A stretch of 64,000 nucleotides of DNA from Xestospongia muta (lineage: Eukaryota; Porifera; Demospongiae; Haplosclerida; Petrosiidae). The DNA is taken from positions 13,268,192 through 13,332,191 of the forward strand of contig OY848917.1 of NCBI GenBank assembly GCA_963693285.1. The letters are read 5' to 3'. Each line of letters begins with the position of its first letter. Position 1 is the first letter of the stretch. The notes beneath the pieces were generated by a model that worked only from the letters and a program-made list of their open reading frames with translations, made no database searches and was not told where the DNA came from. Position numbers and translations under genes: made by a program. This document shows positions 13,947-58,891 of the stretch, piece by piece.

Positions 13947-16654
13947 CTATTCATTTTTTACATTTATATAATTACTTCCTGATAACTGAACTGTCATCTC
14001 ATCGTCATTTGTCTCTGCAGCAGTTGCAACAGAATATATTGGTGGTACAATATTTTGTAGTGACTGAGCAGGTGTAGATTCGTTGTTGTGTTTCTTCTTA
14101 TTAACTGATGCATAAACATGTAATGTGTAAGGATTGATATCTTCTTCATTGTTATTATCTCTTAACTGTATACTCTCATCATTTATCTTGCTTTCAACTG
14201 TAGTACCATCTTTCTTCTTATCGACTACTGCGTAAACATGTGATGCATATGGATTGATATCTTCTTTGGTGTTATTATCTCTTAACTGTAGATTCTCATC
14301 ATTTAACTCATTTTCAACTTTAGTATCATCTCTGTATTGTAAGAATAAACATTGTGGTTGATAACACTTATAACAATATTACATGTTTACCTTGATGACA
14401 GGTATTGTCCTGTATATTCTCTTTGTGGATTCATTATGTCACTAGAAAAGTATGACAAATACATTCTATTGTTTAATTGGAATTAATAATTACACAGTCT
14501 TCATGGACATGGGAATCTATTTTAAAATAAATTCAACACTTACAATTTTTCGTATCTTCTTCTTCGCAACCATAAGCAGCTTATTATTAACACAATGATA
14601 GTGATAAGGTTAGTAAAAAATAGAAATACCACACCAATAACAAGCCATGATGACAACACTTGTGAATTCTCTCTACAATTGCAGTCTTTTGAGTGAGAAC
14701 TTGGACTTGGTTTTATTATCATTGCTTTGCTATTGACTGTTGATGTCATTTTGTCAATTGATGACGAAGTAAAAAAATAAAGCAATTTTAAATAGATGAA
14801 ATATGATGCTTTGATAAATTACCTGTATTTAATGTAGTTACATCACTCCATTCACTTGGAAGTACATATTCCTCGTTTGAATATGACACTACAAAGAAAC
14901 TGTAGTTTTGATTATTGCATAAACCACTAATGATCAGTTCAGTATAGTTGGTCACTCCTACACTGATTGTTTTACAATAACAATCATTAACATCATAGAA
15001 CACTTCATAACCATCTATCGATGGATTGTCATTAACTGGTGGAGACCATGTGACTAGAACATCAGAGGAATTAATCCACTTTGCTGTGACATTTATTGGT
15101 TTCCCAGCAACTATAATTAAGAAATGGTCATTACCATTGTCTTTCATTTCATAATGGTTGCCAATTATGGTCATATACATGCATATAATATACTGTAACT
15201 GTTTGAAGATGCTGTCTAGAATTTATCTCATTTGTTATATAAAATTATCTTAATGACTGTTGGCCAAGGTTTATGCATGAGGGCTGTCTATCTGATCTAA
15301 TGTAGCTTTGCTATGTAATTGTGTGTATGGGCTATCACTATATATTTATAAGACATTCCATCATATTATACAGTATATATACACACTTGCCTTTTTGACA
15401 CATTTGCTTAAGTATACAAACTGTGCAATGCCATAGTAACTAGTAATCAAAACAGTGTATATTTCAAATTTTTTTTGTGAATGTATGCTACATCTACCAA
15501 GTGATTATCAATCAGTTAAAACAAACAATCTATGTAAACAATGTGTGTGTTTTTGTACATACCTTTAACATAACTGTAAGCAGGATAGGCTTGATTTATA
15601 CTATTGTAGTACTTGTTCTCAAGTACATAAACTTTGCAATTCCATAGTAATTAGCAATCAAAACAGTTCACGGTCTAATACTTATCAATGTGCATACAGA
15701 TTAATGCTATGTTCAGCCAAGTGACTATCATTCAGTTAAAACAACTAATCAATTTGAACATTGTGTGTGTTTTGTACATACCTTTAACATATATATTATT
15801 GTAAGCAGGATAGGATTGATTTATACTATTGTAGTACTCATCCTCAACTCTAGTGTTAGATACAGAACAATTGTACCATCCTTCATCTCTTGATTGAAAT
15901 AGAAGCTCTACTAAAATTTTAGTTGGTAGTTGATATGAGAGAATAATCTGTGTAATATTGGGATAGATCAAAGTATCATTTAGTGTACAATTGATATATG
16001 TTGCTGTTCCATTTGTAACATTGAAGGATATCAGGAATGATGAATCATCTCTGGTGGATAGTAATGACTTGAATGTTGTTTCAGTGATTTTAGGTCCTCC
16101 TGAACAAATTAATAAAACTATTATTGATTTTTAATCCAATTTCACTCACTGTTTACTCTGTAAGTATGCACCTTGTATAGTGCTATCCTCAATGTTTGAT
16201 TTATATTACATTCATCTGGTATAACACATGTATAAATACCCTCAAAATTATTCAGCCCATTGTCACGATATAGTCCAATCTGTCCTGACATATACACAGA
16301 ATGTAATGGTGATGAGTCGTCTACTGTAGACACTTGAGTACCATTAGGATAATACCATACTCCAATATTAGACTCATTTTTAGCACTTTGACACCACAAG
16401 GCATCATTTAATCCATTATTGTTTTGGTCATTATCATAGAAATAATTTGCAGGAATCATGGAATTATTTGTGTAGGACGTTTTATCAAGTCCTCCATACA
16501 ATCGCACTCCTATATTGTTAGTAGTATATATATATGTAATTAGTTAATGCTTTTTAGAAAACTTACCAGTGTGAGGTAATGGTGGAGGATCATTAGACCT
16601 GGCCAGTAATGGTATCAGTACACCAACTGTAAGAAAAAAGAAGATAGTTGACAT
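13947..16654 (-). CDS. Receptor A: Ig-Ig-FN3-TM with tyrosine repeat tail
   Basis: Type I membrane receptor of the local family. Exons (minus strand): 16567-16654 signal peptide (MSTIFFFLTVGVLIPLLARS), 16150-16509 Ig1, 15782-16099 Ig2, 14823-15110 FN3, 14544-14736 stalk and membrane helix, 14391-14441 juxtamembrane, 13947-14331 tail. These sum to 1683 bases, an open frame of 560 residues. Ig1 carries Cys in ALWCQSAKNES and GIYTCVIPDE. Ig2 carries Cys in the INCTL position and in GWYNCSVSN. FN3 starts KPINVTAKW and has the DCYCK loop. The helix is VVFLFFTNLITIIVLIISCL, followed by RRRRYEKL. Many N-x-S/T sites are present. The tail has two 40-residue units with HVYAVV and HVYASV and ends NYINVKNE. 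The stalk is short; no repeated stalk exon was found. The ligand is unknown. Junctions were chosen by phase and paralogue agreement. Confidence 0.85.
15410..15781 (-). repeat. Partial Ig2 exon duplicate inside an intron of A
   Basis: The 3' end of the Ig2 exon and its donor (GTATGTAC context) recur around 15556-15625, next to the true end at 15782. The intron sequence after each copy is also alike (15410-15555 versus 15610-15770). This is a tandem duplication of about 200 bases whose second exon end has no matching start, so it should be spliced out. Confidence 0.75.
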
Positions 16655-16703
16655 TATTATGACAATCCTCGAATATCGAGCTAGTCACCCTGCCCTTAGA
16701 AAT

Positions 16704-16712
16704 GGGAGGGGC
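16704..16712 (-). promoter_or_regulatory. GC-box-like motif upstream of receptor A
   Basis: GGGAGGGGC on the plus strand lies about 50 bases upstream of the start codon of A, in otherwise AT-rich DNA. Similar motifs lie upstream of receptor J and pseudogene H. A promoter role is inferred from position only. Confidence 0.35.
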
Positions 16713-16719
16713 TTTGTAG

Positions 16720-17300: not shown

Positions 17301-17312
17301 CAATCTAAATTG

Positions 17313-18296: not shown

Positions 18297-20850
18297 GAGG
18301 ATAATTAGACCTGATGAACAATGGTATTAGTACAGATGAGAAGAAAATTAATACTATTATGACAATCTTGAAAATTAATCAAATATGCTCACACTATATC
18401 AAACTAAAGCTTTAAAGTTACAGATAAAAATGTTCTCTAAACTCATCAATATTGTTCAAGTATATTCTCTATTAAGAAATTTATTCCTTATTTGTTATCT
18501 TCATTCACATAATTATTTCCTCATAAATGGAATGTCAAGTTGTTTACATAGCTCATTAAACTATTTAGAAACAATAGTGGAAACTTGGATTTGTTGGTTG
18601 TATAGCTATGATTTTGATTCTTTAGTGGATATTCATAAATTACGTACAAGGAGTGACTCAAAGTCATCTAGAATCTTCTAATCATGAAGTTTGCAAATTC
18701 TCTTCATTCTGATTATATTGTTCAACAACTTATCGGTTCTTCAAATCATACTAATAATGTATCAGTAATAAACAAGATAAAGCCATGTAGATTATTTTAA
18801 ATTTTTTTGTTCTACTGCAATAACTGAATGTAGGAGGAATAAAATGAAACAGCATAATAACCACCAGAGCATATAGCAACAATTATTTCAGTACTCTGTA
18901 CTATGAGCACTACATTGTAATGGCAGGTGTCATTAATATACTACCAATTGCCTTATCATAGCAGTAATAAAGTCTATACATTATAACCAGTGATCAAACA
19001 AGACAGCGTTAATTATTATGAATTTACAATGATTTTAAAGATATTTATTTGTAAAATGTAAATGTTTTGAATAAAAATGTGGGATACAACCTTTGAGTAG
19101 CCTCTATGACTGATATGTAGATAATGATTCTTGAGAAGTTGGTATAGGAGAACTGTTTAATGGAGAAATTATTGTATAAGGATATGCATCATGGAAACTC
19201 ATTATGAAGTTTGTGTTGGAGCTAGTTTTTGAAGCTTTTAAAAAGTTTGAAGAGTACCTCCTTACCTTCTGTATATTTTCTACTATATAGAGATGACCTA
19301 CTCATATATAACAAATTAAACTCAGTGAAGGTTTGTGCTAGTTAAAGTTTTTTCTTAATGACAACAGTGATATCACTTCTTTGACTGAACACATAGGAAG
19401 ACCTTCAAGTTATTCTACAGAGGTTAATATTAGTGTCATTGTCATTTGTTATGTAAGAGTCATTGTCGCTTATCACAGTAACGAGACTATAGGAATGTTG
19501 TTTTATATACCAAATGTTTGAAAAAAAATGTATGTTTGAAGAAAATGTAATGAATTAATATATATACATATTATTTTAAGGTACTGTATATATATATATA
19601 TATAAATTTTTCATGATATCTAATTTGAACTCCAAATAATGAGTGATAAATCTATTGCATGCAGTAAAGATTAATATAATATGGATGACTACATATGTCA
19701 TTGCAGCTCAACATATTTTATGTACATTGTTTGATGTTATTCACCAGATGTCTTAACATTAACTGGTGTATATGTGATCTTAATCTAAAAGCACTTACCT
19801 AAGTTACTATTTGATAAGGCAATGAATTATGGTGATTGAAAAGTACATAGTAATAAGGTACTCAGTGTACATTTAGAGTTTAATGATATCTGACTTTTGA
19901 AAAATTATTCAGATTATATTCTACTTTATACTTACATTTTTAAAAGCACACTATAAGTACCATCTCTGTGTTGTAAGAATCAACATTGTAGTTGATAAAA
20001 CTTATAACAATATTACATGTTTACCTTGATGATAAGTATTGCCTTGTACATTTTTTTGCATCATCATGTCACTGGAAGAGTATAACATATACATTCTATT
20101 ATAAATTTCAATTGAAATTAGTAATTACACCAACTTTAATAGACCTGGGAAAAATATTTGTAAATTTACTTTAATGCTTACAATCATTCATGTTTTCTTC
20201 TTAGTAACCATAAACAGCTTATAATGAACACAATGACAGTGATAAGGTTAGTAAAAGTAGAAATCCTACACCAAAAGTTGGTTATGATGACAACACTTGT
20301 GAAGTCTCTCTACACTTACAGTCATTTAATTGAGAACTTGGAGTTGGTTTTACTAATGTTGTTATTTCATTGATTGATGACATTGTTGCTCTGTTGATCC
20401 CAATTAATGATGTCAATGTTGATGACAGTGTAATTTCATTAACTTTCATTAATTAATTTTATGTTATTAACTGATGGTGATGTCAATTCATTTATATAAT
20501 GAAGAAATGAAGCAATTTTAAATATATGAAATATGACATTTTGATAACTTACCTGTATAGTGACATCACTCCATTCACTTGGAAGTGCATATTCCTCATT
20601 TGAATGTGATACCACAAAGAACCTGTAGTTCTGACTACTACATTAACCACTGACGATCAGCTCAGTATATTTGGTCACTCCTACACTGAATATTTTACAA
20701 TCACAATCATGAACACCATAGAACACCTCATAACCATCTACTAATTGATTGTTATTAACTAGTTGAGACCATGTGACTATAATATAGAACATTTGAGAAA
20801 TTGATCTACTTTGCTATGGCATTGCAGGTTTCCTAACAACTATACAATTA
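18297..20850 (-). pseudogene. Receptor B: broken member of the Ig-FN3 family
   Basis: Minus-strand remnants are strewn over 2.5 kb. They include an FN3 exon with stops and deletions (about 20555-20850, still matching SEWSD and the DCDCK loop), a membrane exon (about 20180-20460), the small juxtamembrane exon (about 20030-20080), and the splice context of the tail exon near 19950. The tail itself is missing: 3' flank sequence joins straight to that splice site. A signal-peptide-like scrap lies near 18297-18360, out of order relative to the rest, and both Ig exons are absent. This is a rearranged, dead copy. Confidence 0.75.
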
Positions 20851-20859
20851 GCAAATGAT

Positions 20860-21715: not shown

Positions 21716-24700
21716 ATGATGCCAAATAGTTTCATTTATCTTGTTTTCGGTGTGTTAATACCATCATTGGCAAGGTCTACTAAACCTCCTCCATTACCTC
21801 ACACCGGTAAAGTTTCTAAAGATACACTAACTAATACTTAATATCATTATATTAATTTATATAGGAGTGAGATTGTATGGAGGATACAATAATATATCCT
21901 ACCCAAATAATTCCATAATTCCTGCAAATTATTTCTTTGATAATGACAAAAACAAAGATGGATTATATGATGCCTTGTGGTGTCAAAGTGCTAAAAATGA
22001 GTCTAATATTGGAGTTTGGTATTATCCTAATGGTACTCAAGTGTCTACAGTAGATGACTCATCACCATTACATTCTGTGTATATGTCAGGACAGATTGGA
22101 CTATATCGTGACTTTGGGATAAATAATTCTCAGGGTATTTATAGATGTGTTATACCAGATGAATGTAATGTAAATCAAACATTGATGGTACTACTGTACA
22201 CGATGAATACTTATAAAGTAAACAGTGAGTTAAATTGAATTAACAATGAATAATAGTTTTATTAATATATTCAGATGGACCTAAGATCACTGAAACAACA
22301 TTCAAGTCATTACTAACCACCAGAGATGATTCATCATTCCTAATGTCCTTCAATGTTACAGATGGAACAGCAACATATATCAATTGTACACTAAATGATA
22401 CTTCGATCTATCCCAATATTACACAGACTATTCTCTCATATCAAGTACCAACTAAAATTTTAGTAGAGCTTCTATTTAAATCAAGAGACGAAGGATGGTA
22501 CAATTGTTCTATATCTAATGCTAGAGTTGAGGATGAGTACTACAATACTATAAATCCATCCTATCCTGCTCACAATAATATATATGTTAAAGGTATGTAC
22601 AAAACACACACACTGTTCAAATTGATTAGTTGTTTTATTGATTGATAATCACTTGGCCGAACATAGCATTAATCTGTATTGATAAGTATTAAGACTGTGA
22701 ACTGTTTTGATTGCTAATTACTATGGAATTGCAAAGTTTATGTACTTAAACAAAAGAATTTTCAAGTAAGGCATATGTGTGTATAGTATAAAAAATGTCT
22801 TATAAAAACATCATGGCATTCCTTACAATCATAAATTACTCAATGACAATGTTTTTGCCATCCCCTCCCCTGTATTTATTGAAATTGTTTTTATAAATAA
22901 TAAGATAAATATTTTGACAGTAATATTGTTTTGACAATTATACACTGTAAAAATTGATTTGTTGATTTAACCAATGTATTGTTATACAGGTTGCAGGTAG
23001 CAAACTAATATGATGTGAAAATAGACATAACACTGTTTTTTTTTACTAATAAATATAATATTAATATTATTAGTGATAAAAATGGTGTTATGTTTACTTT
23101 CACATCATATTAATTGCTACATACAACCTGTATAACAATATATTGGTTAAAATCAACAATTCTATTTTTTACAGTGTAGTTTAGTAATGATAGCACTACA
23201 ATGTTTATTGTTTGAAGCATCTCATCTTGTTACAGTATATTGTATTCAATGTAATTGATTGACAAACATTTTGAGAGTGCAAGACAAAATGATGACCATT
23301 TCTTAATTATAGTTCCCAGGAAACCAGTAAATGTAACAGCAAAGTGGACCAATTCCTCTGATGTTCTAGTCACATGGTCTCCACCAGTTAATGACAATTC
23401 ATTAATAGATGGTTATGAGGTGTTCTATGGTATTAGTGATTGTGATTGTAAAACATTCAGTGTAGGAGTGACCAAATATACTGAACTTATCATCAGTGGT
23501 TTATGTAGTAATCGAAATTACAGTTTCTTTGTGGTGTCATATTCAAATGAGAAACATACACTTCCAAGTGAATGGAGTGATGCCACTACACTCACTGCAG
23601 GTAACTCATAATTCATGTATTTGAATTGTTTCATTTCTTTCACTATTGTAAGTCAACAAAGTGATACCATCACTAGTTAATATAATAAAGCTGTCATTGA
23701 CTGACATCAATGATGTCACTACAATCAACACAGGTAGCTTATCACAATGTTATCTATTCCAACTTGCTTCATTTCTGTCATTATCAGTCAATGAAGTAAT
23801 GCCGTCATCGACATTGACATCATCATTTAGGATCTATGATGTCACTACAATCAATACAGGTAAGTTATCACAAAGCTACATTTCATACTTCTAAAATTGG
23901 TTTATTTCTTTCACTATATAAAAGTCAACGAAATGACATCATTATCAGTTAATAAAATAATACCATCATCAATATTGACATCATCAATTTGGATCAGTGA
24001 TGTCACTACAATCAATACAGGTAAGTTATCACAAAGCTACATTTCATACTTCTAAAATTGGTTTATTTCTTTCACTATATAAAAGTCAACGAAGTGACAC
24101 CATCATTGGTTAATAATATAATACCATCATCAATATTGACATCATCCATTTGGATCAGTGATGTCACTACAATCAATACAGGTAAGTTATCAAAAAGCTA
24201 CATTTAATACTTCTAAAATTGGTTTATTTCTTTCACTATATAAAAGTCAACGAAGTGACATCATCATCGGTTAATAAAATAATACCATCATCAATATTGA
24301 CATCATCAATTTGGATCAGTGATGTCACTACAATCAATACAGGTACGTTATCACATTTTATACTTTTGAAATTGGTTCATTTCTTTCACTATATATATTG
24401 AACAAAGTGACATCATCATCATTTAATGAAATTAATTATAAGCTGTCATCAACGGTGATGTTATCAATTGGAATTAACAGAAGAACATTGTCATCAAGCC
24501 AAGAGATAAAAACATTAATAAAAAAACCAACTCCAAGTTCTCCATCAAATGATCGTATATGTGAAGAGAATTCACCAGTGTTGTCATCGTGGCTTATTGT
24601 TGGTGTGGCATTTCTGGTTTTCACTAACCTTATCACTATCATTGTGTTAATAATAAGTTGCTTATGGTTTCAAAGAAGAAAATATGAAAAATTGTAAGTG

Positions 24701-25600
24701 TTAAAGTGAATTTGTGAATAGTTCACATATTCATCGAAGTTAGTGTAATTATTAATTCTAATTAAAGAGTAGAATGTGTTTGTCATACTTTTCTAGTGAC
24801 ATAATGAATCCACAAAGAGAATATACAGGACAATACTTGTCATCAAGGTAAACATGTAATGTTGTTATAAGTGTTATCAACTACAATGTTGATTGTTATA
24901 ATACAGATATGGTACTAAAGTTGAAATTGAGTTAAATGATGAGAGTCTACAGTTAAGAGATAATAACAACAAGGAAGATATCAATCCGTATGATAAACTT
25001 GTTTATCCAGTAGTTGTTAAGAAAAAAGATGGTGCTACAATTGAAAGTGAGATAAATGAAGAGAATCTGCAGTTAAGAAATAATAACAATGAAGAAGATG
25101 AAAATTCATATTCACCGCATGTTTACGCAGTGCTTAAGAAGATGGAAGATGGTACTACAGTTGACAGTGAGATACATTATGAGAGTTTACAGTTAAGAGA
25201 TAGTAACAATGAAGAAGATGACAAATCATATTCATCACATGTTTACGCAGTGCTTGAGAAGATGGAAGATGGTACTACAGTTGAAAGTGAGATAAATGAT
25301 GAGAGTCTACAGTTAAGAGATAATAACAATGAAGAAGATGACAAATCATATTCATCACATGTTTATGCAGTGCTTGAGAAGATGAAAGATGGTACTACAG
25401 TTGAAAGTGAGATAAATGATGAGAGTCTGCAGTTAAGAGATAATAACAATGAAGAAGATGATAATTCATATTCATCACATGTTTATGCAGTAGTTAATGA
25501 GAAAGAAGACCAAAATGGATCACCAATACCTTCACCTGCAGCTACTGCAGTGATGAATGATGATGAGATGACAGTTCAGGATGAAGACATAACTGTGTGA
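21716..25600 (+). CDS. Receptor C: largest Ig-Ig-FN3 receptor, five tail repeats
   Basis: The only intact family member on the plus strand. Exons: 21716-21806 signal peptide (MMPNSFIYLVFGVLIPSLA), 21865-22224 Ig1, 22275-22592 Ig2, 23313-23600 FN3, stalk exons 23653-23733, 23788-23859, 23925-24020, 24086-24181 and 24247-24342, 24408-24693 last stalk plus membrane helix, 24797-24847 juxtamembrane, 24907-25600 tail. Total 2529 bases, 842 residues. Ig1 Cys residues lie in ALWCQSAKNES and GIYRCVIPDE, Ig2 Cys residues in YINCTL and WYNCSISN. FN3 has DCDCKTFSVGVTKYTELIIS. The helix is VGVAFLVFTNLITIIVLIIS, followed by FQRRKYEKL. The tail has five 40-residue units with LVYPVV, HVYAVL three times and HVYAVV. 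The stalk is Ser/Thr-rich and may be O-glycosylated. Surface recognition and tyrosine signalling are inferred. Confidence 0.88.
22943..23176. mobile_element. Tc1/mariner-like MITE, copy 1
   Basis: A 234-base foldback flanked by TA on both sides, starting CACTGTAAAAATTGAT and ending in TTTTTTACAGTG. Most of its length pairs with itself (for example ATATGATGTGAAA with TTTCACATCATAT). It lies in the intron between the Ig2 and FN3 exons of receptor C. Related copies are at 32049 and 50627. Confidence 0.85.
23653..24342 (+). repeat. Tandem array of stalk exons in receptor C
   Basis: Five consecutive exons of 81, 72, 96, 96 and 96 bases, each beginning and ending in phase 1. The last three start at 23925, 24086 and 24247, an exact 161-base period of exon plus intron, and are nearly identical. 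Each encodes a unit like VNEVTPS then IWISDVTTINTG. Any number of them can be skipped or gained without loss of frame. Confidence 0.85.
25020..25500 (+). repeat. 120-base coding repeats in the tail of receptor C
   Basis: The unit runs from KMEDGTTVESEINDESLQL to SYSSHVYAVLE. Starts near 25141, 25261 and 25381 give an exact 120-base (40-residue) period. An older unit precedes them from about 25020, and the first LVYPVV unit lies before that. Only a few bases differ among the last copies. Confidence 0.92.
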
Positions 25601-26058: not shown

Positions 26059-26677
26059 TAGCCTCGTACCCAGGCGTTCTAGTAAAGAGTAGAACGCCTG
26101 GTGACTACTGCTTGCGCATGCGCTTAATTATTGAAACGTGTTGACATCATAATTACTACTTTTTCAATTAAATGACGAATCGATGGGCTGAGTTTATAAT
26201 GATGACGTTTCATTCACTACATGAATTTAACCATGGCTAGTCGAGTTTGTCGGTTATGCAGTGATTTAGTGGAAGCCAAAAGAGCAACAAACTTGTTTAG
26301 TGCTGTTGGGATGCAAAACAACTGGGTTTCTCGAATAACTTCTTTGCTTGATGTTATCGTTTCGAGAGATCATGGTCTCTCTTTATATATTTGTATTAAG
26401 TGCAAAATTCGAATTGTGTCTCTAGAGAAATCTCTTGCAGACTTAGAGGCATTCAAACAGCTGGTTCCTAACTTCTTTAGAGCATACAGTAGACCAGCAG
26501 AAAAGTTTCTATCAGTACTACAAAGTAGCCATCACAATTATGACATTGAGGTAAAAGGAATTTTGACGTCATAGTTGACGGAGGATTCCTAGAGTATACT
26601 ATTTTCCATGAAATCTGTGGAAATTAAACGCATGCGCAAACAGTTGTTACCAGGCGTTTAGCCTGGGTACGAGGCTA
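26059..26677. mobile_element. 619-base inverted-repeat element, Mutator-like
   Basis: The ends are TAGCCTCGTACCCAGGC and its reverse complement. Homology between the two ends goes on inward to the TTGCGCATGCG block, giving imperfect inverted repeats of roughly 55-65 bases. It is flanked by a perfect 10-base direct repeat, ATATTCTTAC, at 26049-26058 and 26678-26687. Each end also holds a small hairpin (CCAGGCGTTCT with AGAACGCCTGG on the left). Long inverted repeats with a 9-11 base target duplication fit the Mutator superfamily. No transposase is inside, so it is non-autonomous. Confidence 0.88.
26221..26574 (+). CDS. ZAD-like zinc-binding domain inside the element
   Basis: A 117-codon frame in the middle of the 619-base element. 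MASRVCRLCSDLVEAKRA and later LSLYICIKCKIRIVSLE give two CxxC pairs about 50 residues apart, with LF, an Ile/Leu-rich helix region and the LxxxI(C)xxC layout of the ZAD (zinc-finger-associated) domain. At the end, ATTGAG|GTAAAAGG can serve as a splice donor (about 26551), after which only seven codons remain before a stop. It therefore looks like a first exon cut from a longer gene. A TGACGTCA box lies at about 26564. Whether it is expressed is unknown. Confidence 0.6.
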   Translation: MNLTMASRVCRLCSDLVEAKRATNLFSAVGMQNNWVSRITSLLDVIVSRDHGLSLYICIKCKIRIVSLEKSLADLEAFKQLVPNFFRAYSRPAEKFLSVLQSSHHNYDIEVKGILTS

Positions 26678-38121: not shown

Positions 38122-38129
38122 GTTTTAGT

Positions 38130-42371: not shown

Positions 42372-44658
42372 TCACATAATTACTTCCTGATAATCAACGA
42401 TATTCTCATCATTGTTCTTATCAGCAGCAGATGAAATGGAATATACTGATGAACCACTTTTGTCTTTCTTATTAACTACTGGATAAACATGTGATGCAAA
42501 TGGATTGATATCTTCTTCATCGTCATCATCACTTAAGAGTAGGTTCTTGTCATAGGACTTACTTTCAACTGCAGTACCATATCTGTATTGTAAGAATCAA
42601 CATTTTATTTGATAACACTTATAATAACATTACTTGTTTCCATGTTTTCTAGATTTTAGCAACCATAAGCAGCTTATAATTAACACAATGACAGTGATAA
42701 GATTAGTGAAAAGGAGAAAACCCACACCAATAGGCCACGATGACGAATTCTCCTCACAATTTCTGTTGTTTGCAATTGATTGACAACTTGGAGTTGGTTT
42801 CATAAATGTTGTTATTCCATTGACTAATGTCGTTATTTCATTGATTGATGAAAATGTTACTCTGTTGATCCCAATTAATGATGTCAATGTTGATGACAGC
42901 AATATTACATTAACTGATGATGATGTCACTTCTTTGATATATATAGTTAACAAAATGAATCAATTTTGAATGCATGAATTATGACATTGTGATAAGTTAC
43001 CTGTATTAAGTGTAGTGACATCATTAATACCATTCGATGATGTCAATGTTGATGACAGCATTATTACATTAACTGATGGTGATGATGTCACTTCATTGAC
43101 ATATATAGTGATAAAAATGAACCAATTTAAAAAAGTTAAATGTACCTGCAATGAGTGTAGTGACATTACTCCATTCACTTGGAAGTGTATGTTCCTCATT
43201 TGAATATGACACCACATAGAAACTGTAGTTTTGACAACTACATAAACCACTGATGATCAGTTCAGTATATTTGGTCACTCCTACACTGAATGTGTTATCA
43301 CTAACACCATAGAACACCTCATAACCATCTATTAATGGATTGTTAATAACTGGTGGAAACCATGTGACTAGAACATCAGAGGAATCGATCCACTTTGCTG
43401 TGACATTTACTGGTTTCCTAGCAACTATAATAAACAAGTGATCATTATATTATATTCATAGTTTCAAGTGGTTGTCAATAATGGTTATTTGCATTGTGTG
43501 TATAATACAGGATAAAAAACATTGCATTGTTGTCAGTCTAAATTATACTGATTGATAGTCGTAGTTAATTGTCAAAGCAATAAAGACATTGTCTAGTATT
43601 GACCACATTAATTTAATGAAATAATTATCATAGATCCAGGCCCTGTGAGTAAGTTATTAGGGCTAAGGGATTAAGGTCAATATGTTTTTATAACATATTT
43701 CTAAATACAATAATTTTTGTAATGTATGCAATGCTTACATGAATGATTAGTAAAACAATCTATTTTAAGTGTGTGTGTTTTGTACATACCTTTAACATAT
43801 ATATTACTGTGAGCAGGATAGGCTTGATTTGTATCATTGTAGTACTTGTCCTCAACTCTAGCATTTGATACAGAACAATTGTACCATCCTTCATCTCTTG
43901 ATTGAAATAGAAGCTCTACTAAAATTTTAGTTGGTAGTTGATATGAGAGAATAATCTGTGTAATATTGGGATAGATCAAAGTGCCATTTAGTGTACAATT
44001 GATATATGTTGCTGTTCCATTTGTAACATTGAAGGATATCAGGAATGCCGAATCATCTCTGGTGGATAGTAATGACTTGAATGTTGATTCAGAGATGTTA
44101 GGTCCTCCTAAATACATTAATAAACCTATTATTGAATGTTAATTGAATTTCACTCACTGTTTACTCTGTAAGTATGCTCCTTGTATAGTAGTACCATCAT
44201 TGTTTGATTTACATTATGTTTGTCTGGTATAACACATTTGTAAATACCCTCAAGTTTATTCAGCCCATTGTCAAAATATAGTCCGATCTGTCCTGACATA
44301 TGCACAGAGTGTAATGGTGTTGAATTGGTAGACACTTGAGTACCATTAGGATAATACCAAACTCCAATATTAGACCCATTTCTAGCACTTTGACACCACA
44401 AGGTATCATTCAATCCATCATTGTTTGGATCATCTTGATGGAAATAACTTGCAGAAATCATAGAATTATTTGGATAGGATACATTATTGTATCCTCCATA
44501 CAATCTCACTCCTATATTATTATATATATATATATATAACTAGTTTGTGGTTCTTTAGAAAACTTACCAGTGTGAGGTAATGGAGGAGAATCATTAGACC
44601 TCGCTAGTAATGGTATTAGTACACCAACTACTAGAGAAAAGAAGACAGCTGACATCAT
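42372..44658 (-). CDS. Receptor F: Ig-Ig-FN3-TM, one tail unit, fused exon
   Basis: Exons (minus): 44568-44658 signal peptide (MMSAVFFSLVVGVLIPLLA), 44158-44511 Ig1, 43790-44107 Ig2, 43146-43424 FN3, 43001-43090 stalk, 42634-42928 stalk plus helix, 42372-42582 tail. Total 1638 bases, 545 residues. Ig1 Cys residues lie in TLWCQSARNGS and GIYKCVIPDK. The FN3 loop reads SDNTFSV, without the Cys pair of A, C and J. The helix is VGFLLFTNLITVIVLIISCL. The juxtamembrane exon of the other copies is gone. A deletion places a new GTAATG donor after KSRKHGN, and the phase still fits the tail exon, so the join reads HGNKYGTAVES. The tail has one unit with HVYPVV and ends DYQEVIM. Confidence 0.82.
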
Positions 44659-46804: not shown

Positions 46805-47999
46805 TACCTGTAATGGGTTTAGGGACCTTGCTCTATTCACTTGAGAGTGTACGTTCCTAATTTGAATATGACACCACAAACAAACTCTAGTATTACGTAT
46901 TACATAAACCACTGATGATCATTTCAGTATTGTTAGTCACTCCTACATTGACTATTTTATTACTACCATAGAACACTTCAAAAACATCTATTAATGGTTG
47001 TTAATAACTGGTGGAAACCATGTGACTAGAACATCAGAGAACTTGATCCACTTTGATGTGACATTTACTAGTTTCCTAGCAACAATAATGCAATAATAAT
47101 CATTACATTGTCTATAGTCGTTTGTACATACCTTTAACATATACATTACTGTGAGCAGGATAGATTTGATTTATACTATTGTAGTACTTGTCCTCAACTC
47201 TAACATTTGATACAGAACAATTGTACCATCCTTCATCTCTTGATTTAAATAAAAGCTCTACTAAAATTTTAGTTGGTAGTTGATATGAGAGAATAATCTG
47301 TGTAATATTGGGATAGATCAAAGTATCATTTAGTGTAGAATTGATATATGTTGCTGTTCCATTTGTAACATTGAAGGATATCAGGAATGATGAATTATCT
47401 CTGGTGGATAGTAATGACTTGAATGTTGTTTCAATGATCTTAGGTCCACCTTGAATATATTAATAAAACTATTATTGATTGATAATTCAATTTAACTCAC
47501 AGTTTATTTCATAAGTATACAACTTGTACAGTAGTATCATCAATGTTTGATTTACATTATGTTCATTTGGTATAACATGTATAAATATCACATAGTTATT
47601 TAGCCCATAGTCACAATATAGTCCAATCTGTCCTAACATATACACAGAATGTAATGGTGATGAGTCATCTACTGTAGACACTGGAGTACCATTAGGATAA
47701 TACCAAACACAAATGTTAGACTCATTTCTATCACTTTGACACCACAAGGACCATTTAATCAATCTTTGTTTGGATCATCTTTATGGAAATGATTTGTAGG
47801 AATCATAGAATTATTTGGGTAGGATATATTACTGTATCTTCCATACAATCACACTTTTGTATCATAAAAGTATATATAATTAGTTAATACATTTTCAAAA
47901 ACTTACCATATAGTCAGGTCATGGAGGAAGATCATTAGATCTGGCCAGTAATGGTGTTAGTACACCAACTGTAAGAAATAAAAAGATAGTTGACAACAT
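46805..47999 (-). pseudogene. Receptor G: truncated member
   Basis: A signal exon near 47915-47999 (MLSTIFLFLTVGVLTPLLA) has a degraded donor. Ig1 (about 47505-47860) has lost bases, and the GIYxCVIPDE segment now reads VIFIHVIPNE, so its second Cys is gone. Ig2 (about 47136-47455) is well kept (QTTWYNC equivalent: GWYNCSVSNVRVEDKYYN). FN3 (about 46813-47080) has frame breaks near 47000. Stalk, helix and tail exons are missing. This copy should not make a receptor. Confidence 0.8.
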
Positions 48000-48890
48000 A
48001 ATTCCTGCCAGTCTGCTCATAGGTAATCACAGAGTATTAATTATTCCATAGATGTTATAAATGGATGATCAGATTCATGCTCTGACATCACTTCCTGTTA
48101 TGCACAAATAATTTCAGATATATACAACAGTACACACTACAACACGTGTACTACAACCAGATATAACTAAAACTTTTGAAATTGTTTATAATTGCAAAAT
48201 TTTCAACAAAAAAGCAAATAAGTTCTACACAGAAATTATGTTAAAATAGATAGAATGTTTTTTGACAAAAGACTTATCAGTAGTACATAAGTAACATGTC
48301 ATATATGTTATGTTTATCACTTTTGTCAGATATAAGCTTCTAAGAGGTCAGTTTTATTTATAAATATGTCTTTTATATGCCATTTATAACATATACTCAT
48401 TATAAATATGGTTAAAAGTAAAATTATGTACTGGTATGAATTTTGTTAGAAAACATTCTATCAATTTTAACATAATTTCCTTCTAGAACATCAATTACTT
48501 ACTTCTTGTAAATTTTTGGCAATTACAAAGTATTTCAAAAGTTTTAGTTATATCTGTTGGTATTACATGTGTTGTCACATGTTGTCATGTGTATTGTTGT
48601 ACATATCACAGCTTTATCATGGAAAATCAATCATTTGTTAACTCACTTGTATAAGACAGCCATGTTTAGCAAATGTAGCCATAGTAACATAGGTTCAACT
48701 AGTTTTGGTGTAAAGCGCATGATCACTTAGAGTTGGATGTTGTTTTACATCCATGTTGTATAATACTATGATTATTAATATCTTTTTTCCTGCTATTTAC
48801 ATTTGGTTTGGGTCTTCATTATCTGGGAACAAAGTTATTAATTATTCATAATAACATTATTATAAGAATAGTTATTTTCTTTTCGTATTT
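48000..48890. other. Spacer between G and H
   Basis: No gene was seen. It contains imperfect inverted text around 48190-48550 (for example AACTTTTGAAATTG near 48170 and CAAAAGTTTTAGTTATATCT near 48537), so a foldback element of about 380 bases may lie here. Confidence 0.4.
48155..48560. mobile_element. Possible large foldback element
   Basis: The left arm (CAGATATAACTAAAACTTTT at about 48158) is mirrored on the right (AAAAGTTTTAGTTATATCTG at about 48538). Inner blocks pair too, for example ATTATGTTAAAATAGATAGA near 48235 with TCAATTTTAACATAAT near 48460. It looks like a MITE or a palindromic insertion between G and H. The exact ends and target duplication were not settled. Confidence 0.65.
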
Positions 48891-48904
48891 ACATAATTAC
48901 TTCC

Positions 48905-49850
48905 TTATAACTGAATTGTCATTTCATGATCATTCATCTCTGTAGCAGTTGCATTGGAATATGTTGGTGGTAAAATATTTGTCATGACCAAACTGGCTTA
49001 GATCCATTGTTTTCTTTCTTTACATTAACTACTTTATAAACGTGTGTTGCATATATGGATTGTATAATCATCATTGGTTAAGCATAAATTCGTGTCACTT
49101 AACTCATTTTCAACTTTAGTACCATCTCTGTATTGTAAGAATAAACATTGTGGTTGATAACACTTATAACAATATGACATGTTTACCTTGATGACAGGTA
49201 TTGTCCTGTGTATTCTCTTACACTGATAATCATGCTAACTTTGATGAACGTGAGAAGCAATTTGCAAATTAACCTTAACTCTTACAAATTTTTATGTTTT
49301 CTTCTAGATCTAAGCAACCATACAACACACACCTTATAATGAACACAATGATAGTGATAAGATTAGTAAACGTAGTGTCTATTTGTCCGGCAGGAAATGT
49401 ATACTTTGTTGTATAAAGGTAGGTTAAGGTTTAGTGGGTGGTGATCAGTTTAATGCACAACAAAGTATACATTTCCTGCCGGACAAATAGACACTGCCAT
49501 TAGTAAAATGTAAAAATCTCGTGCTAGTAATGAGTTATGATGAGAAATTTCTTCAAAACTACAGTGATTTAATGGAGACTTAGTTTTACAAATGTTGGTA
49601 TAAATATTCCATTGACTAACATTGTTATTTCATTGATTGATGTTAGAACTTCATCATTGATGTCAATGATGATACATTTTAAATTCATTAACTTAACATT
49701 ATAAGGTAATGGAGGAGGCCCATTAGATCTGGCTAACAATGGTATTAATGCTAGTCTGGCGTTGGCGACCCTTTCTCTCTTAGCGAAGGGTAGGTAAAGT
49801 TAGACCATATTAGTGCACCAACTTTAAGACAAAGATATGTTTATGACGAA
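48905..49850 (-). pseudogene. Receptor H: fragments with MITE insertion
   Basis: A tail exon remnant (about 48905-49132) starts RDGTKVENELSD but shifts frame before the HVYKVV motif. The juxtamembrane exon (about 49188-49230) and the membrane exon (about 49275-49680) follow, the latter split by a 128-base foldback. A signal-peptide scrap (about 49705-49830) carries a further insertion of about 60 bases. FN3 and both Ig exons are missing. Non-functional. Confidence 0.75.
49371..49498. mobile_element. 128-base foldback MITE
   Basis: Perfect 39-base inverted repeats (49374-49412 and 49457-49495; outer end AGTGTCTATTTGTCCGGCAG) surround a 44-base loop. The element is flanked by a perfect 9-base direct repeat, ATTAGTAAA, at 49362-49370 and 49499-49507. 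It interrupts the membrane-helix exon of pseudogene H. Other paralogues have one copy of the ATTAGT(A/G)AA word there, which shows the empty site. Confidence 0.92.
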
Positions 49851-50390: not shown

Positions 50391-50392
50391 TG

Positions 50393-52464
50393 TCATCTCA
50401 AAAGATTCTTTTCTGCTTCTGATAAATTGGAATATATTGGTAGTCCATCATCTTTTTTCTTCTTATTAATTTGTGCATAAATATATGATGAAAATGTAAT
50501 GTCTTCTTCTTTATTGTTATTATCCATGAATTGTAGATTTTGATAATTTAACAAACTTTCAACTGTTGTATCATCTCTGTATTATAAGAATCGACATTGT
50601 GATTGATAACACTTATAACAACATTACGCTGTAAAAATGATTGGTTGATTTAAGCATCATTGGATTATACAGGTTGCAATTGTAAACTTATCTTTGTCGA
50701 AAGAGTAATCATAATATTGTTTTCATTACTAATATACTACTGTTTATGTAGCTACAAAATAATCACTTCACTGTACATTAATAATGAAATTAGTAGTATG
50801 TTTACATTTTGTATATGCAAGTTGTATAACAATGTATTAGTTAAATGAACCAATCAATTTTTACAGTGTACATGCTTACCTTGATGACAAGTATTGTCCT
50901 GTGCAATCTTCTTGTTTAATCATTACGTCACTAGAAAAGAATGGCAAATAAATTGTATTCTTTAATTGAAGTTAATATGGAATTATATTTAGTTCGATCT
51001 ATATAGAAAACTATTTGCAAAATATTTTACTTACAACTTTTTATGTTTTCTCATGAATCTTAAAAACAATAAGCTGATTATAACGAGCACAATGATAGTG
51101 ATAACATTAGTGAAAAGCAGAAATCCAGTACCAATAATGGGCCATAGTGACAAATTGTCTCCACAATTACTGTTGTTTGATTGAGAAGTTGGAGTTAGTT
51201 TTACTAATGTTGTAATTTTATTGACTAATGAATTAACCAATTTTAAAAGTATGAAATATGACATTTTGATACGTTACCTGCAATGAGTGTAGCGACATCA
51301 CTCCATTCACTTGAAAGTGTATATTCCTCATTTGAATATGACACCACATAGAAACTGTAGTTTTGACTACTACATAAACCACTAATGATCAGTTCAGTAT
51401 AATTGGTTACTTCTACACTGAATGTGTTATCACTAACACCATAGAATACCTTATAACCATCTATTAATGGATTGTTAATAACTGGTGGAGACCATGTGAC
51501 TAGAGCATCAGAGAAATTGACCCACATTGCTGTGACATTTACTGGTTTTCTAGCAACTATAATACAATATAATTGTATTGTGTATGTTTTTGTACATACC
51601 TTTAACATATATATTATTGTGAGCAGGATAAGATGGATTTATAGTATTGTAGTACTTGTCCTCAACTCTAGTGTTAGATATAGAACAATTGTACCATCCT
51701 TTATCTCTTGATTGAAATAGAAGCTCTACTAAAATTTTAATTGGTAGTTGATATGAGAGAATAGTCTGTGTAATATTGGGATAGATCAAAGTATCATTTA
51801 GTGTACAATTGATATATGTTGCTGTTCCATCTGTAACATTGAAGGATATCAGGAATGATGAATTATCTCTTGTTGATAGTAATGACTTGAATGTTGTTTC
51901 TGTGATCTTAGGTCCACCTGAACATGTTAATAAAACTATTATTGATTGTTAATTCAATTTAACTCACTGTTTATTTTATAAGTATACATTGTGTACAGTA
52001 GTATCATTAATGTTTGATTTACATTACATTCATCTGGTATAACACATCTATAAATACCCTGAGAATTATTTATACCATAGTCACGATATAGTCCAATCTG
52101 TCCTGACATATACACAGAATGTAATGGTGATGAGTCATAATTTATTGTGGACACATGAGTACCATTAGGATAATACCAAACTCCAATATTAGACTCATTT
52201 TTAGCACTTTGACACCACAAGGCATCATTTAATCCATCATTGTTTTTGTTATTTCCATGGGAATAATTTGCAGGAATCATGGAATTATTTGGGTAGGATA
52301 TATTATTGTATCCTCCATACAATTGTACTCCTATATTATTATAAATAATAGTTAAAATACCTTTCAAAGAACTTACCGGTGTGAGGTAAAGGAGGAGGAT
52401 TAACAGACCTGGTCAGTAATGGTGTTAATACACCAACTACAAGATATAACAAGATAGTTAACAT
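50393..52464 (-). CDS. Receptor I: Ig-Ig-FN3-TM with short tail
   Basis: Exons (minus): 52377-52464 signal peptide (MLTILLYLVVGVLTPLL), 51968-52330 Ig1, 51600-51917 Ig2, 51278-51556 FN3, 51035-51224 stalk and helix, 50880-50930 juxtamembrane, 50393-50576 tail. Total 1473 bases, 490 residues. Ig1 Cys residues lie in ALWCQSAKNES and GIYRCVIPDE, Ig2 in GWYNCSISN. The FN3 loop is the short SDNTFSV type, as in F. The helix is FLLFTNVITIIVLVIISLLF, followed by RFMRKHKKL. The tail has one unit, with YIYAQI, a good fit to the ITIM pattern, and IYSNL. Compared with paralogues, the end is cut by a frameshift: the conserved DDEMTVQ segment is read in another frame as KNLLR and stop. It is otherwise open. 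Confidence 0.83.
50627..50868. mobile_element. Tc1/mariner-like MITE, copy 3
   Basis: 242 bases between TA dinucleotides, starting CGCTGTAAAAATGATT and ending TTTTTACAGTG. It sits in the intron between the tail exon and the juxtamembrane exon of receptor I. It shares end sequence with copies at 22943 and 32049. Confidence 0.8.
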
Positions 52465-52479
52465 CGTTTATGACAATCT

Positions 52480-55400: not shown

Positions 55401-55480
55401 GTTAACAGCTAAAAACATTCTCTAAATATAATAATAACGTTTCAAATATCTCCTCCATAAATGTAATTATTCCTATTGTT
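52480..55480. other. 3-kb spacer between I and K
   Basis: No gene, relic or clear element was recognised up to about 54860. After that comes the left copy of a segmental duplication whose right copy starts near 56090. The AT content is high throughout. Confidence 0.5.
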
Positions 55481-57240
55481 CACATAATTACCTCCTGATA
55501 ACTGAACTGTCATCTCATTATCATTCTTCTCTGAAGCAGTTATATTCGAATACACTGGTGATCATTGTCTTTATTCTTATTAACTACTGCATAAACATAT
55601 AATATGTATGAATTGTTATTTTCCTCATTGTCATTATCTCTTAACTGTAAATTATCATTATATATCTCACTTTCAAATTTAGTACCATCTTCCTTCTCAT
55701 TAACTACTGCATAAACATGTGATGAACGTGGATTATAATTTTCTTAATTGCTATTACCTCTTAATTGTAGATTTTCGTCATTTAACTCACTTTCAACTGT
55801 AATACCATCTCTGTATTGTAAGAATCAACATTGTGGTTGATAACACTTATAACAACATTGCATGTATACCTTGATGACAAGTATTGTTCTGTATATTCTC
55901 CTAGTGGTGTCATTATACTATGAGTGTAGTGATATCACTCCATTCACCTTGAAGCATATGTTCCTCATTTGAATGTGATACCACAATTAAGCTATAGTTT
56001 AGACTGCTACATAAACCACTGATGATAAGTTCGGTACAGTTGGTCACTCCTACACTGAATGTTTTACAATCACAATCACTAATACGTGATTGTTAACAAT
56101 CCTGGAATGTAGTTTATACTATCTAGACCCAATGTCACTATGTAAGGAGACTGAGGTTACTACGTTCAGTTGTCATAGTAATGGGATAGAAGAATGGTTA
56201 TAATACTTTATATAATGAACAATATGTGTTGATTTTCTATTAGTTTATATAACAGATATATGTTTGGTTAAACAGGAATCCCTTGAAAATGTGACTCTGA
56301 AGTTATACATTGGTCAGGAGCTATTATAAATATGTTACCCAATCTGATAATGTAAAGTGATTATATAAGTTCACTACTATCAGTTGTTATAGTAATGATT
56401 GTAATAAGATAAAGAAATGGTGTGGTGTATATAATGTAGGTATTTGGTTGAGAATGAAATGTTAACTATATATATAGGAGTATTGCTGATTGCATAATCA
56501 TGAATTTTAAGTCATTGTGTGTACATTTAAAATTTTAAATACCTGACTTTTTAAAAAATTAATTGAATTAAGTTCACACTTTATAATTATATTTTTAAAA
56601 AGCACACTATATCAAACTTGTGTTATAAAGTTAACAGCTAAAAACATTCTCTAAATATAATAATAATGTTTTAAACACGTTCTCCATAAATGTAGTTATT
56701 CCTATTTAATGTTCACATAATTACCTCCTAATGACTGAACTGTCATCTCATCATCATTCTTCTCTGCAGCAGTTATATTGGAATACACCTGTGATCCATT
56801 GCCTTTCTTCTTATTAACTGGTGCATAAACATGTGATGCATACGAATTGTTATTTTCTTCTTCGTTATTATCTCTTAACTGTATATTATCATCATATATC
56901 TCACTTTCAAATGTAGTACCATCTTCATTCTCATTAATTACTGCATAAACATGTGATGAACATGGATTGTCATCTTCTTTATTGCTATTATCTCTTAATT
57001 GTAGATTTTCATTATTTAACGAGCTTTCAACTGTAGTATCATCTTTCTTCTTGTTAACTACTGGATAAACAAGTTTATCATATGGATTGATATCTTCTTT
57101 GGTGTTTTTATCTCTTAACTGTAGATTCTCATTATTTAACTCAATCTCAACTTTAGTACCATCTCTGTATTGTAAGAATCAACATTGTGGTTGTAAACAC
57201 TTATAACAACATTACATGTATACCTTGATGATAAGTATTG
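54860..57240. repeat. Tandem segmental duplication of about 1.2 kb
   Basis: 54880-55860 and 56095-57220 run parallel: GTAGTTTATAC, GTTCAGTTGTCATAGTAATG, GTGTTGATTTTCTATTAGTT and TATGTTTGGTTAAACAGGAA occur in the same order in both, followed by a receptor tail exon in each. The left copy ends in pseudogene K and the right copy in the intact receptor J. Confidence 0.85.
55493..56082 (-). pseudogene. Receptor K: tail and FN3 fragment
   Basis: A tail exon (about 55493-55809) has two 40-residue units with HVYAVV and YVYAVV, but a TAA interrupts the first unit (SN-stop-ENYNP). After the juxtamembrane exon (about 55869-55912), the sequence joins directly to an FN3 piece (55919-56082, ISDCDCKTFSVGVTNCTEL). 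The stalk and membrane helix are deleted, and so are both Ig exons. Dead copy, related to J. Confidence 0.8.
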
Positions 57241-58735
57241 TCCTGTATATTCTCTTAGTCGTTTCATTATACTATAACAGAAAAGTATATATATAACAAG
57301 TACATTGTATTCTTTAATTTGTATAAATAATTACAATTACTTTAACGGATTTGGGAAAGTATTACAAAATTAACTTTAATACTTACAAATTTTTATGTTT
57401 TCTTCTTAGCAACCATAAGCAACTTATAATGAACACAATGAATGTGATAAGATTAGTGAAAAGGAGAAATCCCACACCAATAATTGACCATGATGATGAA
57501 TTCTCTTCACAATTACTGTTGTTTGGAATTGATTGACAACTTGGAGTTGGTCTTACAAATGTTGTTATTCTGTTGACTAATGTTGTGTTGACGTATATAG
57601 TAAAAGAAATTGACCAATTTTAAAAGTATGACATATAATATTGTTTCAAGTTACCTGCAATGACTGTAGTGATATCACTCCATTCACTTTGAAGTGTATG
57701 TTCCTCATTTGAATATGACACCACATAGAAACTGTAGTTTTGAGTACTACATAAACCACTGATGATCAGTTCAGTAGTGTTGGTCACTCCTACACTGAAT
57801 GTTTTACAATCACAGTCACTAACACCATAGAACACCTCATAACCATTTATTAATGGATTGTTATTAACTGGTGGAGACCATGTGACTAGAACATCAGAGG
57901 AATTGATCCACTTTGCTGTGACATTTACTGGTTTTCTAGCAACTATAATATACTAATAATAATCATCACATTGTATTGTTTTTTGCACATACCTTTAATA
58001 TATATATTATTGTGAGCAGGATAGGCTTGATTTATACTATTGTAGTACTCATCCTCAACTCTAGTGTTAGATACAGAACAATTGTACCATCCTTCATCTC
58101 TTGATTGAAATAGAAGCTCTACTAAAATTTTAGTTGGTAGTTGATATGAGAGTATAGTCTGTGTAATATTGGGATAGATCAAAGTATCATTTAGTGTACA
58201 ATTGATATATGTTGCTGTTCCATTTGTAACATTGAAGGATATCAGAAATGATGAATCATCTCTGGTGGATAGTAATGACTTGAATGTTGTTACAATGATC
58301 TTAGGTCCACCTGAACACATTAATAAGATTATTATTGATTGTTAATTCAATTTAACTCACTGTTTATTTTATAAGTATACGTCGTGTACAGTAGTATCAT
58401 CAATGTTTGATTTACATTATGTTCATCTGGTATAACACATGTATATATACCCTCATATTTACCTATACTATATTCACGATATAGTCCAATCTGTCCTGAC
58501 ATATACACAGAATGTAATGGTGATGAGTTTTCTTCTGTGGACACTTGAGTACCATTAGGATAATACCATACCCCAATATTAGACTTATGTTTAGCACTTT
58601 GACACCACAAGTTGTCATTAAATCCATCATCATTTTGATCATTTCCATAGAAATAATCTGCAGGAATTATGGAATTATTTGGGTAGGACGTTTTATTGTA
58701 TCCTCCATACAATCGCACTCCTATATTATTATAAG

Positions 58736-58767
<32 letters not shown>

Positions 58768-58891
58768 TTAGTTAGTTAGTTAATAAATCTTTAGAAAACG
58801 TACCAGTGTGAGGCAATGGAGGAGGGTCATTAGAACTCGTCAGTAATGGTATTAATACACCAACTGTAAGAAAAAAGAAGACAGTCGACAT
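56702..58891 (-). CDS. Receptor J: Ig-Ig-FN3-TM, three tail units
   Basis: Exons (minus): 58804-58891 signal peptide (MSTVFFFLTVGVLIPLLTSS), 58361-58720 Ig1, 57993-58310 Ig2, 57655-57942 FN3, 57387-57576 stalk and helix, 57224-57271 juxtamembrane, 56702-57164 tail. Total 1755 bases, 584 residues. Ig1 Cys residues lie in NLWCQSAKHKS and GIYTCVIPDE, Ig2 in GWYNCSVSN. The FN3 loop is DCDCKTFSV with the Cys pair. The helix is VGFLLFTNLITFIVFIISCL. The tail has LVYPVV, HVYAVI and HVYAPV units, then VYSNI and NYVNI. The first unit (NPYDKLVYPVV) matches the first unit of receptor C, so unit order is partly kept between distant copies. Function as for the family: inferred surface receptor. Confidence 0.86.
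58738..58785. repeat. TA microsatellite with TTAG repeats
   Basis: A TA run of about 25 bases, then AGTTAGTTAGTTAGTT, in the intron after the signal exon of J. Confidence 0.9.

What the first reader, a model, noticed from the sequence alone, without database searches (positions are those of the whole stretch)
13947..58891. Cluster of paralogous Ig-Ig-FN3 receptors with tyrosine-repeat tails
Five open genes (A, C, F, I, J) and at least four broken copies share one exon plan: signal peptide, Ig1, Ig2, FN3, stalk/helix, juxtamembrane exon, tail. Seen directly: all five open frames close to a multiple of three and share phases. Established: Ig-rich, single-pass receptors with tail tyrosine motifs are typical of immune and allorecognition receptors (for example Alr genes in Hydractinia). 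Inference: this is a sponge self/non-self or microbe recognition family. The mix of live and dead copies and of both orientations suggests birth-and-death evolution.
Basis: partly seen in the sequence, partly recalled or inferred. Interest (0 to 1): 0.9.

Follow-up and report, generated by a model that had tools for sequence, protein, structure and literature searches.

The report
Sponge immune-type receptor gene cluster
A stretch of what is likely a sponge genome holds five open and four broken copies of one gene predicted to encode a cell-surface receptor; matches to its first domain recur about 150 times in that genome, in one cluster mostly beside tyrosine-phosphatase exons with which they are predicted to form single genes, so the family likely works as a recognition system wired like vertebrate paired immune receptors.

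Summary
In detail: copies A, C, F, I and J have open, splice-consistent frames; B, G, H and K are fragments or frameshifted. Order: signal peptide, Ig1, Ig2, FN3, stalk, TM, juxtamembrane, tail. Pfam finds only FN3 above cut-off, but a confident model of a relative matches NCAM2 Ig-Ig-FN3. All listed relatives with an organism name are Amphimedon queenslandica. The cluster belongs to a superfamily: 150 scored Ig1 matches, 39 at 68% identity or more, 111 at 55% or less. New: (1) in C7:495-700 kb, 13 of 15 related Ig1 exons are followed by tyrosine-phosphatase exons, and Amphimedon gene models join both; (2) 23 of 23 uninterrupted last tail exons keep a YxxPhi tyrosine, while four C7 copies carry another short tail; (3) Ig1 changes faster than Ig2 family-wide (0.68 against 0.39), not within the window's own cluster; (4) SH2-SH2-phosphatase and SH2-kinase genes are present. 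Ligand, polymorphism and function are untested; allorecognition remains inference.

The parts
13947..16654 (-). copy A, open, 7 exons: SP 16567-16654, Ig1 16150-16509, Ig2 15782-16099, FN3 14823-15110, stalk+TM 14544-14736, juxtamembrane 14391-14441, tail 13947-14331
20187..20783 (-). copy B, fragment: part of FN3 and a frameshifted TM exon
21716..25600 (+). copy C, open, 12 exons: SP 21716-21806, Ig1 21865-22224, Ig2 22275-22592, FN3 23313-23600, five stalk exons 23653-24342, stalk+TM 24408-24693, juxtamembrane 24797-24847, tail 24907-25600 with about five 40-residue units
23778..24432 (+). 161-base tandem array carrying four of the five stalk exons of copy C
24909..25491 (+). 120-base (40-residue) tyrosine repeat array in the tail exon of copy C
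42372..44658 (-). copy F, open, no juxtamembrane exon found, one extra stalk exon
46824..47996 (-). copy G, broken: frameshifts in Ig1 and FN3, no TM or tail matched downstream
48875..49748 (-). copy H, broken: partial SP, TM, juxtamembrane and tail pieces without Ig1, Ig2, FN3 matches
50393..52464 (-). copy I, open, tail ended early by a stop
55469..56083 (-). copy K, broken: part of FN3, juxtamembrane and interrupted tail
56702..58891 (-). copy J, open, 7 exons, three-unit tail

Best explanation
The window holds part of a much-duplicated gene family that likely encodes single-pass recognition receptors of a sponge, whose Ig1 domain probably binds variable ligands and whose tail tyrosines would, once phosphorylated, dock SH2 proteins. 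Shown from sequence: open gene models, domain order, copy number, a [VI]YxxPhi tyrosine kept in all uninterrupted last tail exons examined, faster amino-acid change in Ig1 than in Ig2 across the family, and other cytoplasmic parts beside related ectodomains (a short tyrosine tail in four C7 copies; tyrosine-phosphatase exons behind 13 of 15 Ig1 exons in another cluster). Inferred: ligand contact brings receptors together, Src-type kinases phosphorylate the tail, and SHP-type SH2-SH2-phosphatases or other SH2 proteins bind, while the phosphatase-bearing relatives oppose phosphorylation directly. The balance would set a threshold for accepting or rejecting a cell or microbe, as paired receptors do in vertebrates. 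Whether the net signal of the window's receptors is inhibitory or activating is not decided.
For: Gene models. AlphaFold2 of relative P0047, pLDDT 80.7, pTM 0.71; best Foldseek match NCAM2 IgIV-FN3I, E 1.8e-10, with PTP delta and cytokine receptors also in the list. Genome copy number. Phosphatase neighbours and joined Amphimedon models. Tail tyrosine in 23 of 23 uninterrupted last tail exons, V/I/L at +3 in all. Domain rates. SH2-SH2-PTP in four single reading frames (C5 629 aa; C3 571, 567, 541 aa) and nine SH2-kinase frames on C8. Three JGI contigs with hardly room for introns encode Ig1 and Ig2 joined as modelled: P0001 491 aa in 1,676 bases, P0047 371 aa in 1,536, P0037 868 aa in 3,059.
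Against: No ligand, expression, phosphorylation or population data. The repeated motif mostly has H at -2, so it is not a textbook ITIM. Tyrosine columns as a class are not significantly more conserved than others (0.82 against 0.70, P 0.08). In the window's own cluster Ig1 and Ig2 rates are equal; no single site survives correction, and stretches above 1 occur in Ig2 and FN3 too (up to 1.64 and 1.13). Phosphatase linkage in this genome rests on position and on Amphimedon models, and some of those models (P0028, perhaps P0033) look like fused neighbours.
Confidence: 0.5

Rival explanations
1. A cell-adhesion or tissue-patterning family: Ig-Ig-FN3 proteins like NCAM or LAR-type phosphatases that hold cells together, with copy number varying without any recognition of non-self.
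For: Best folds include NCAM2 and PTP delta; Ig-FN3 adhesion receptors are the ordinary animal use of this plan (recalled).
Against: To my knowledge adhesion genes rarely stand in over a hundred copies with many pseudogenes, as here; Ig1 pooled omega is 0.68, and 1.19 in the C7 cluster.
Confidence: 0.25
2. Microbe-sensing or phagocytic uptake receptors: YxxPhi tails act as AP-2 sorting or engulfment signals rather than as SH2 docking sites.
For: YxxPhi is also the consensus of endocytic sorting signals (recalled); sponges are phagocytic filter feeders (recalled).
Against: Up to five repeated motifs, and YxN-type ends such as PVYSNV and NYVNIK, fit phosphotyrosine docking better; relatives beside phosphatase exons point to phosphotyrosine control.
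Confidence: 0.15
3. Mostly decaying duplicates with little function: tandem duplication and relaxed constraint explain the raised omega.
For: Four of nine window copies are broken; omega of 0.4 to 1.2 is high; the window cluster shows no Ig1-Ig2 contrast.
Against: Open frames, splice sites and phases persist in five copies; Ig2 is constrained family-wide at 0.39; the tail tyrosine and its +3 residue are kept in 23 of 23.
Confidence: 0.1

Closest known systems
Amphimedon queenslandica uncharacterised Ig1-Ig2-FN3n proteins (e.g. A0A1X7THN0, A0A1X7TQK7; database names only)
   Same: Homologous ectodomain, 31-50% identity in the listings; TM and tails with tyrosines in several, or a PTP domain in five of the listed proteins
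   Different: Usually more FN3 domains and a different short tail; the one such tail tried found no match in this genome
Hydractinia Alr genes
   Same: Clustered Ig-superfamily receptors; tails with ITAM/ITIM motifs (passages of PMC12065747, and PMC11999971)
   Different: For Alr an allorecognition role is established; here untested; no phosphatase-bearing relatives of Alr are known to me (recalled); no Hydractinia protein is named among the listed hits
Botryllus fester co-receptors (FcoR)
   Same: Multigene Ig receptors with tails holding ITIM, hemITAM or a core Y-x-x-I/L/V motif; alternative exons between the Ig/sushi part and TM (passages, PMC12065747)
   Different: Sushi domain, chordate, paired with fester genes
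LAR-type and R3 receptor tyrosine phosphatases
   Same: Ig/FN3 ectodomain on a phosphatase, as predicted for the C7 relatives; an R3-type sponge phosphatase is in print (PMC5336234, passages)
   Different: The window's open genes end in tails without a phosphatase domain

Membership tests
Immunoglobulin superfamily | Ig fold in the two N-terminal domains | tested here: met
   By homology: model of P0047 (38% identical to copy A) gives Ig-Ig-FN3 with NCAM2 as best match. Pfam Ig models give no hit on the window's domains; relative P0023 reaches Ig_2 at 27.2 bits, cut-off 27.
Immunoglobulin superfamily | FN3 domain third | tested here: met
   PF00041 37.9 bits in C, 33.7 in A, cut-off 25
ITIM-bearing inhibitory receptors | (S/I/V/L)xYxx(I/V/L) in the tail | tested here: inconclusive
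   The repeated unit reads H[VI]YxxPhi in most copies; strict spelling in it is LVYPVV of C and J. Each open copy has some strict match (SNYINV in A, VDYQEV in F, LNYQNL in I), but no chance control was run
ITIM-bearing inhibitory receptors | phosphorylation and SHP recruitment | not testable with these tools
   SHP-type genes are present; binding needs experiment
Receptor tyrosine phosphatase | cytoplasmic PTP domain | tested here: not met
   The open copies end in complete tail exons without one (for A), and no listed PTP match lies in the window or the other close clusters (one search is cut off). PTP exons stand behind more distant relatives
Receptor tyrosine kinase | cytoplasmic kinase domain | tested here: not met
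   Same tail exons; no listed PF07714 match lies in these clusters (list cut off)
Hydractinia Alr | sequence relationship to Alr | tested here: inconclusive
   120 of 148 hits listed, with only part of the candidates scored; all with an organism name are Amphimedon; no direct comparison made
Hydractinia Alr | allelic polymorphism that decides fusion | not testable with these tools
   no population data

The most novel reading that the evidence does not exclude
A sponge-grade paired-receptor system: one fast-evolving Ig1-Ig2-FN3 recognition module is joined, by phase-compatible exons, to at least three alternative signal outputs (repeat-tyrosine tails, a short tyrosine tail, a built-in tyrosine phosphatase), with SHP- and Src-type partners encoded in the same genome. 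That would place the kinase-against-phosphatase logic of vertebrate immune receptors in sponges, in a receptor family of its own beside Alr and FcoR, and would name missing membrane receptors of sponge allorecognition.
Probability: 0.25. Interest if true: 0.88.

Novelty: new variant of a known kind. Interest (0 to 1): 0.66.

Why it matters
Sponges tell self from non-self with great specificity, yet to my knowledge no membrane receptor for it is established. A graft transcriptome of Amphimedon (PMC5450542, abstract start and passages seen) reports no significant enrichment of cell-adhesion or aggregation-factor genes, and the words immunoglobulin, fibronectin and tyrosine do not occur in its main text. 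This family gives concrete candidates with defined exons, phosphatase-linked relatives and testable tail motifs. If confirmed, it would show that phosphotyrosine-balanced recognition existed at or near the base of animals, or arose there independently.

Tried and rejected
AlphaFold2 on Amphimedon P0005 with 24 close rows failed (pLDDT 38.6) and was not used. A PDB sequence search with Ig1 gave two chance-level hits (E 0.28). Kinase-linked copies were sought; none is listed in the clusters (list cut off). The Amphimedon tail of P0023 found no match here; without a positive control that is weak. A calcium-loop-like motif before the first Ig1 cysteine was tested and left as a lead: strict form in 12 of the 28 close Ig1 exons with the anchor residues (2 of 30 lack the cysteine and were dropped) and in 3 of 54 homologues. 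Tyrosine conservation as a class was not significant. Those 23 tail exons were picked by me as uninterrupted; broken tails and the four short-tail copies were left out. Site-wise counts had no site passing correction; the two highest stretches are in Ig1 (2.48, 2.02), but Ig2 reaches 1.64 and FN3 1.13. In one search, three stop-bearing exons (one Ig1, one Ig2, one FN3), partial exons and matches under 60% identity were dropped; pairs outside dS 0.05-1 were left out of the medians. In one search, 11 of 15 genes had an FN3 match within 2 kb in the capped list (9 of the 13 with PTP). Paper searches listed no paper whose title or abstract start describes this family; that does not prove absence, as only open-licence papers are held; the aggregation-factor paper PMC5400394 is not held. 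VIA-align rows are tied, many of them two-domain FN3 receptors, so only the Foldseek order was used. A PHROGs scan of one frame gave nothing.
Full report
WHERE IT LIES. The window is C1:13268192-13332191 of a 158-Mb, 28-contig genome without a name. Copy A as query finds 25 proteins: 24 from Amphimedon queenslandica and one unnamed JGI protein, at 31-45% identity. So the organism is most likely a demosponge related to, but not, A. queenslandica (inference).

THE OBSERVATION. tblastn with single exons finds nine copies. I modelled the five open ones from the sequence: A, C and J, F and I. Every modelled intron has GT-AG ends once the fifth exon of F is started at the AG read, and the frames close. 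Outer exons are symmetrical phase 1-1, which lets whole domains be added or lost; TM, juxtamembrane and tail are joined in phase 2. Copies B, G, H and K are partial or frameshifted. C has five stalk exons and a tail of about five 40-residue units; A has two units and J three, F and I one each by eye.

THE DOMAINS. Pfam sees only FN3 above its cut-off. The first domain shows the Ig signature C-W-GxYxC by eye, the second C-GxYxC. With 60 diverse rows the relative P0047 folds well (pLDDT 80.7, pTM 0.71), and the best solved match is NCAM2 IgIV-FN3I (Foldseek E 1.8e-10), the same Ig-Ig-FN3 order. TM scores over the whole chain are low (0.20), as flexible multi-domain proteins often give, so this supports the folds, not the domain angles. 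An earlier model with close homologues only had failed.

HOW MANY COPIES. The Ig1 exon gives 150 scored matches out of 191 candidates, a lower bound. By my count of that table, 39 rows (partial exons included) are at 68% identity or more and lie in five clusters (C1:1.72, C1:10.6, C1:13.3, C7:1.0, C7:2.8 Mb); 111 rows are at 55% or less, most on C7. The window's tail is confined to close clusters: 34 of 34 tail matches. Tandem duplicates of several kilobases are 97.6% and 98.2% identical in their longest aligned pieces. Broken pieces lie among intact ones. This is the pattern of birth-and-death evolution.

OTHER OUTPUTS FOR RELATED ECTODOMAINS. First, four close C7 copies are followed not by the repeat tail but by a short exon reading ECSAYQS (or near) and YE(I/T)V. 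It resembles, by eye and over about 14 residues only, the tail start of a distant-type gene embedded in the same cluster at C7:1002915-1005630; clearer remnants of that gene's tail lie beside these copies. Second, a profile search found Amphimedon proteins with the same Ig1-Ig2-FN3 start and a PTP domain: P0031, P0032, P0033, P0036 and P0038; Pfam gives P0031 a Y_phosphatase of 163.8 bits and an I-set domain before it. Third, in this genome PTP exons stand behind Ig1 exons: of 15 Ig1 matches on the minus strand of C7:495-700 kb, 13 are followed by PTP exons before the next Ig1, at 3.6-16.2 kb, with a listed FN3 within 2 kb in 9 of the 13. Position and the Amphimedon models agree, but no transcript proves the join; P0028 shows that such models can fuse neighbours. 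No listed PTP or kinase match lies in the window's cluster or the other close clusters (two of these lists are cut off).

THE TAIL. In the 23 uninterrupted last tail exons that I picked, one tyrosine is invariant and has V, I or L at +3; in 22 of 23 the residue before it is V or I. The commonest forms are HVYAVI, HVYAVV, HIYEPI and HIYAAI. Within the repeated unit, strict ITIM spelling is seen only as LVYPVV in C and J; scattered strict matches elsewhere were not tested against chance. YxN-type sites (PVYSNV, NYVNIK) occur near the end of many. The JGI protein P0001 has YSVVNKK and YIYAAVNK in its tail, so the motif probably predates this species. Units vary by repeats inside one exon on C1 and, by their spacing, as separate exons on C7. 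Possible partners exist: SH2-SH2-PTP in four single frames and nine SH2-kinase frames on C8. Against a special role, tyrosine columns as a class are not significantly more conserved (P 0.08).

SELECTION. Among 27 genes with all three domains, pooled dN/dS is 0.68 (0.62-0.75) in Ig1, 0.39 (0.35-0.44) in Ig2 and 0.51 in FN3, intervals from resampling genes. Synonymous divergence is similar (median dS 0.22 in Ig1, 0.25 in Ig2), so the contrast lies in replacement changes. In the C7 cluster Ig1 reaches 1.19 (0.87-1.67) and in C1:1.7 Mb 1.07 (0.87-1.45). In the window's own cluster, six genes, Ig1 0.72 and Ig2 0.71 do not differ. Site counts put the highest stretches in Ig1 (IPANYFYDG 2.48, GSQVSTVD 2.02), but Ig2 and FN3 also have stretches above 1 (1.64, 1.13) and no site is significant after correction. 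This is faster or less constrained change in Ig1, suggestive but not proof of positive selection.

HAPLOTYPES. Four ENA ORFs from a 315,760-base contig equal this genome's C7 copies exactly. ORFs from two other contigs match no copy here better than 95% (P0064) and 89% (P0056).

READING. The least strained account is a recognition receptor family whose outer domain diversifies while its tail keeps phosphotyrosine docking sites, with phosphatase-bearing cousins. It works like paired immune receptors and like Alr or FcoR; it is not shown to be a member of either. An R3-type phosphatase of Amphimedon is in print (PMC5336234, passages), and expanded NLR and SRCR genes and Ig-TIR receptors are described in sponges (PMC6208332, PMC7308585, passages). 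None of the passages I read describes this family.

Noticed in passing
G000 C11:3.76-3.99, C12:0.98-1.34, C2:9.41-9.70 Mb: Three further dense clusters of PTP exons; 199 PTP matches reported genome-wide, with FN3 exons also listed on C11 and C12. A very large receptor-phosphatase repertoire seems likely.
   Followed up: partly
G000 C3:11956215-11961765 and C5:8741046-8742560: Four SHP-like SH2-SH2-PTP genes, each in one open frame, three in tandem.
   Followed up: partly
G000 C8:6531713-6584463: Eight SH2-kinase frames in tandem, Src-like by plan.
   Followed up: no
G000 C7:960368-960493 (-): A partial SH2 match (33.5 bits) a few kilobases left of the first C7 copies.
   Followed up: no
Ig1 exons, e.g. 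window 21865-22224: A DxNxDGxxD stretch just before the first Ig cysteine resembles a calcium-binding loop; strict form in 12 of 28 close Ig1 exons; 14 matches in all 30 against a mean of 0.03 in shuffles.
   Followed up: partly
window 30576-38124 (-): Open frames that look like pieces of a class C GPCR (start resembles a ligand-binding region, Pfam E 0.11 only); recalled resemblance.
   Followed up: no
window 26206-26574 (+): Possible zf-AD zinc-finger domain, 22.4 bits, below the cut-off of 28.
   Followed up: no
window 40422-40853 (+): Frame with GVTQGDPLS and YADN, recalled as reverse-transcriptase motifs, in the G+C-richest 2 kb of the window; no Pfam match.
   Followed up: no
window 62711-63545: Long CAGTACCAGTA-type tandem arrays with units of 41 bases and multiples.
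   Followed up: no
L041:1508-2131 (+): Exon of the distant-type C7 gene between FN3 and TM, with a region that matches no Pfam family.
   Followed up: no
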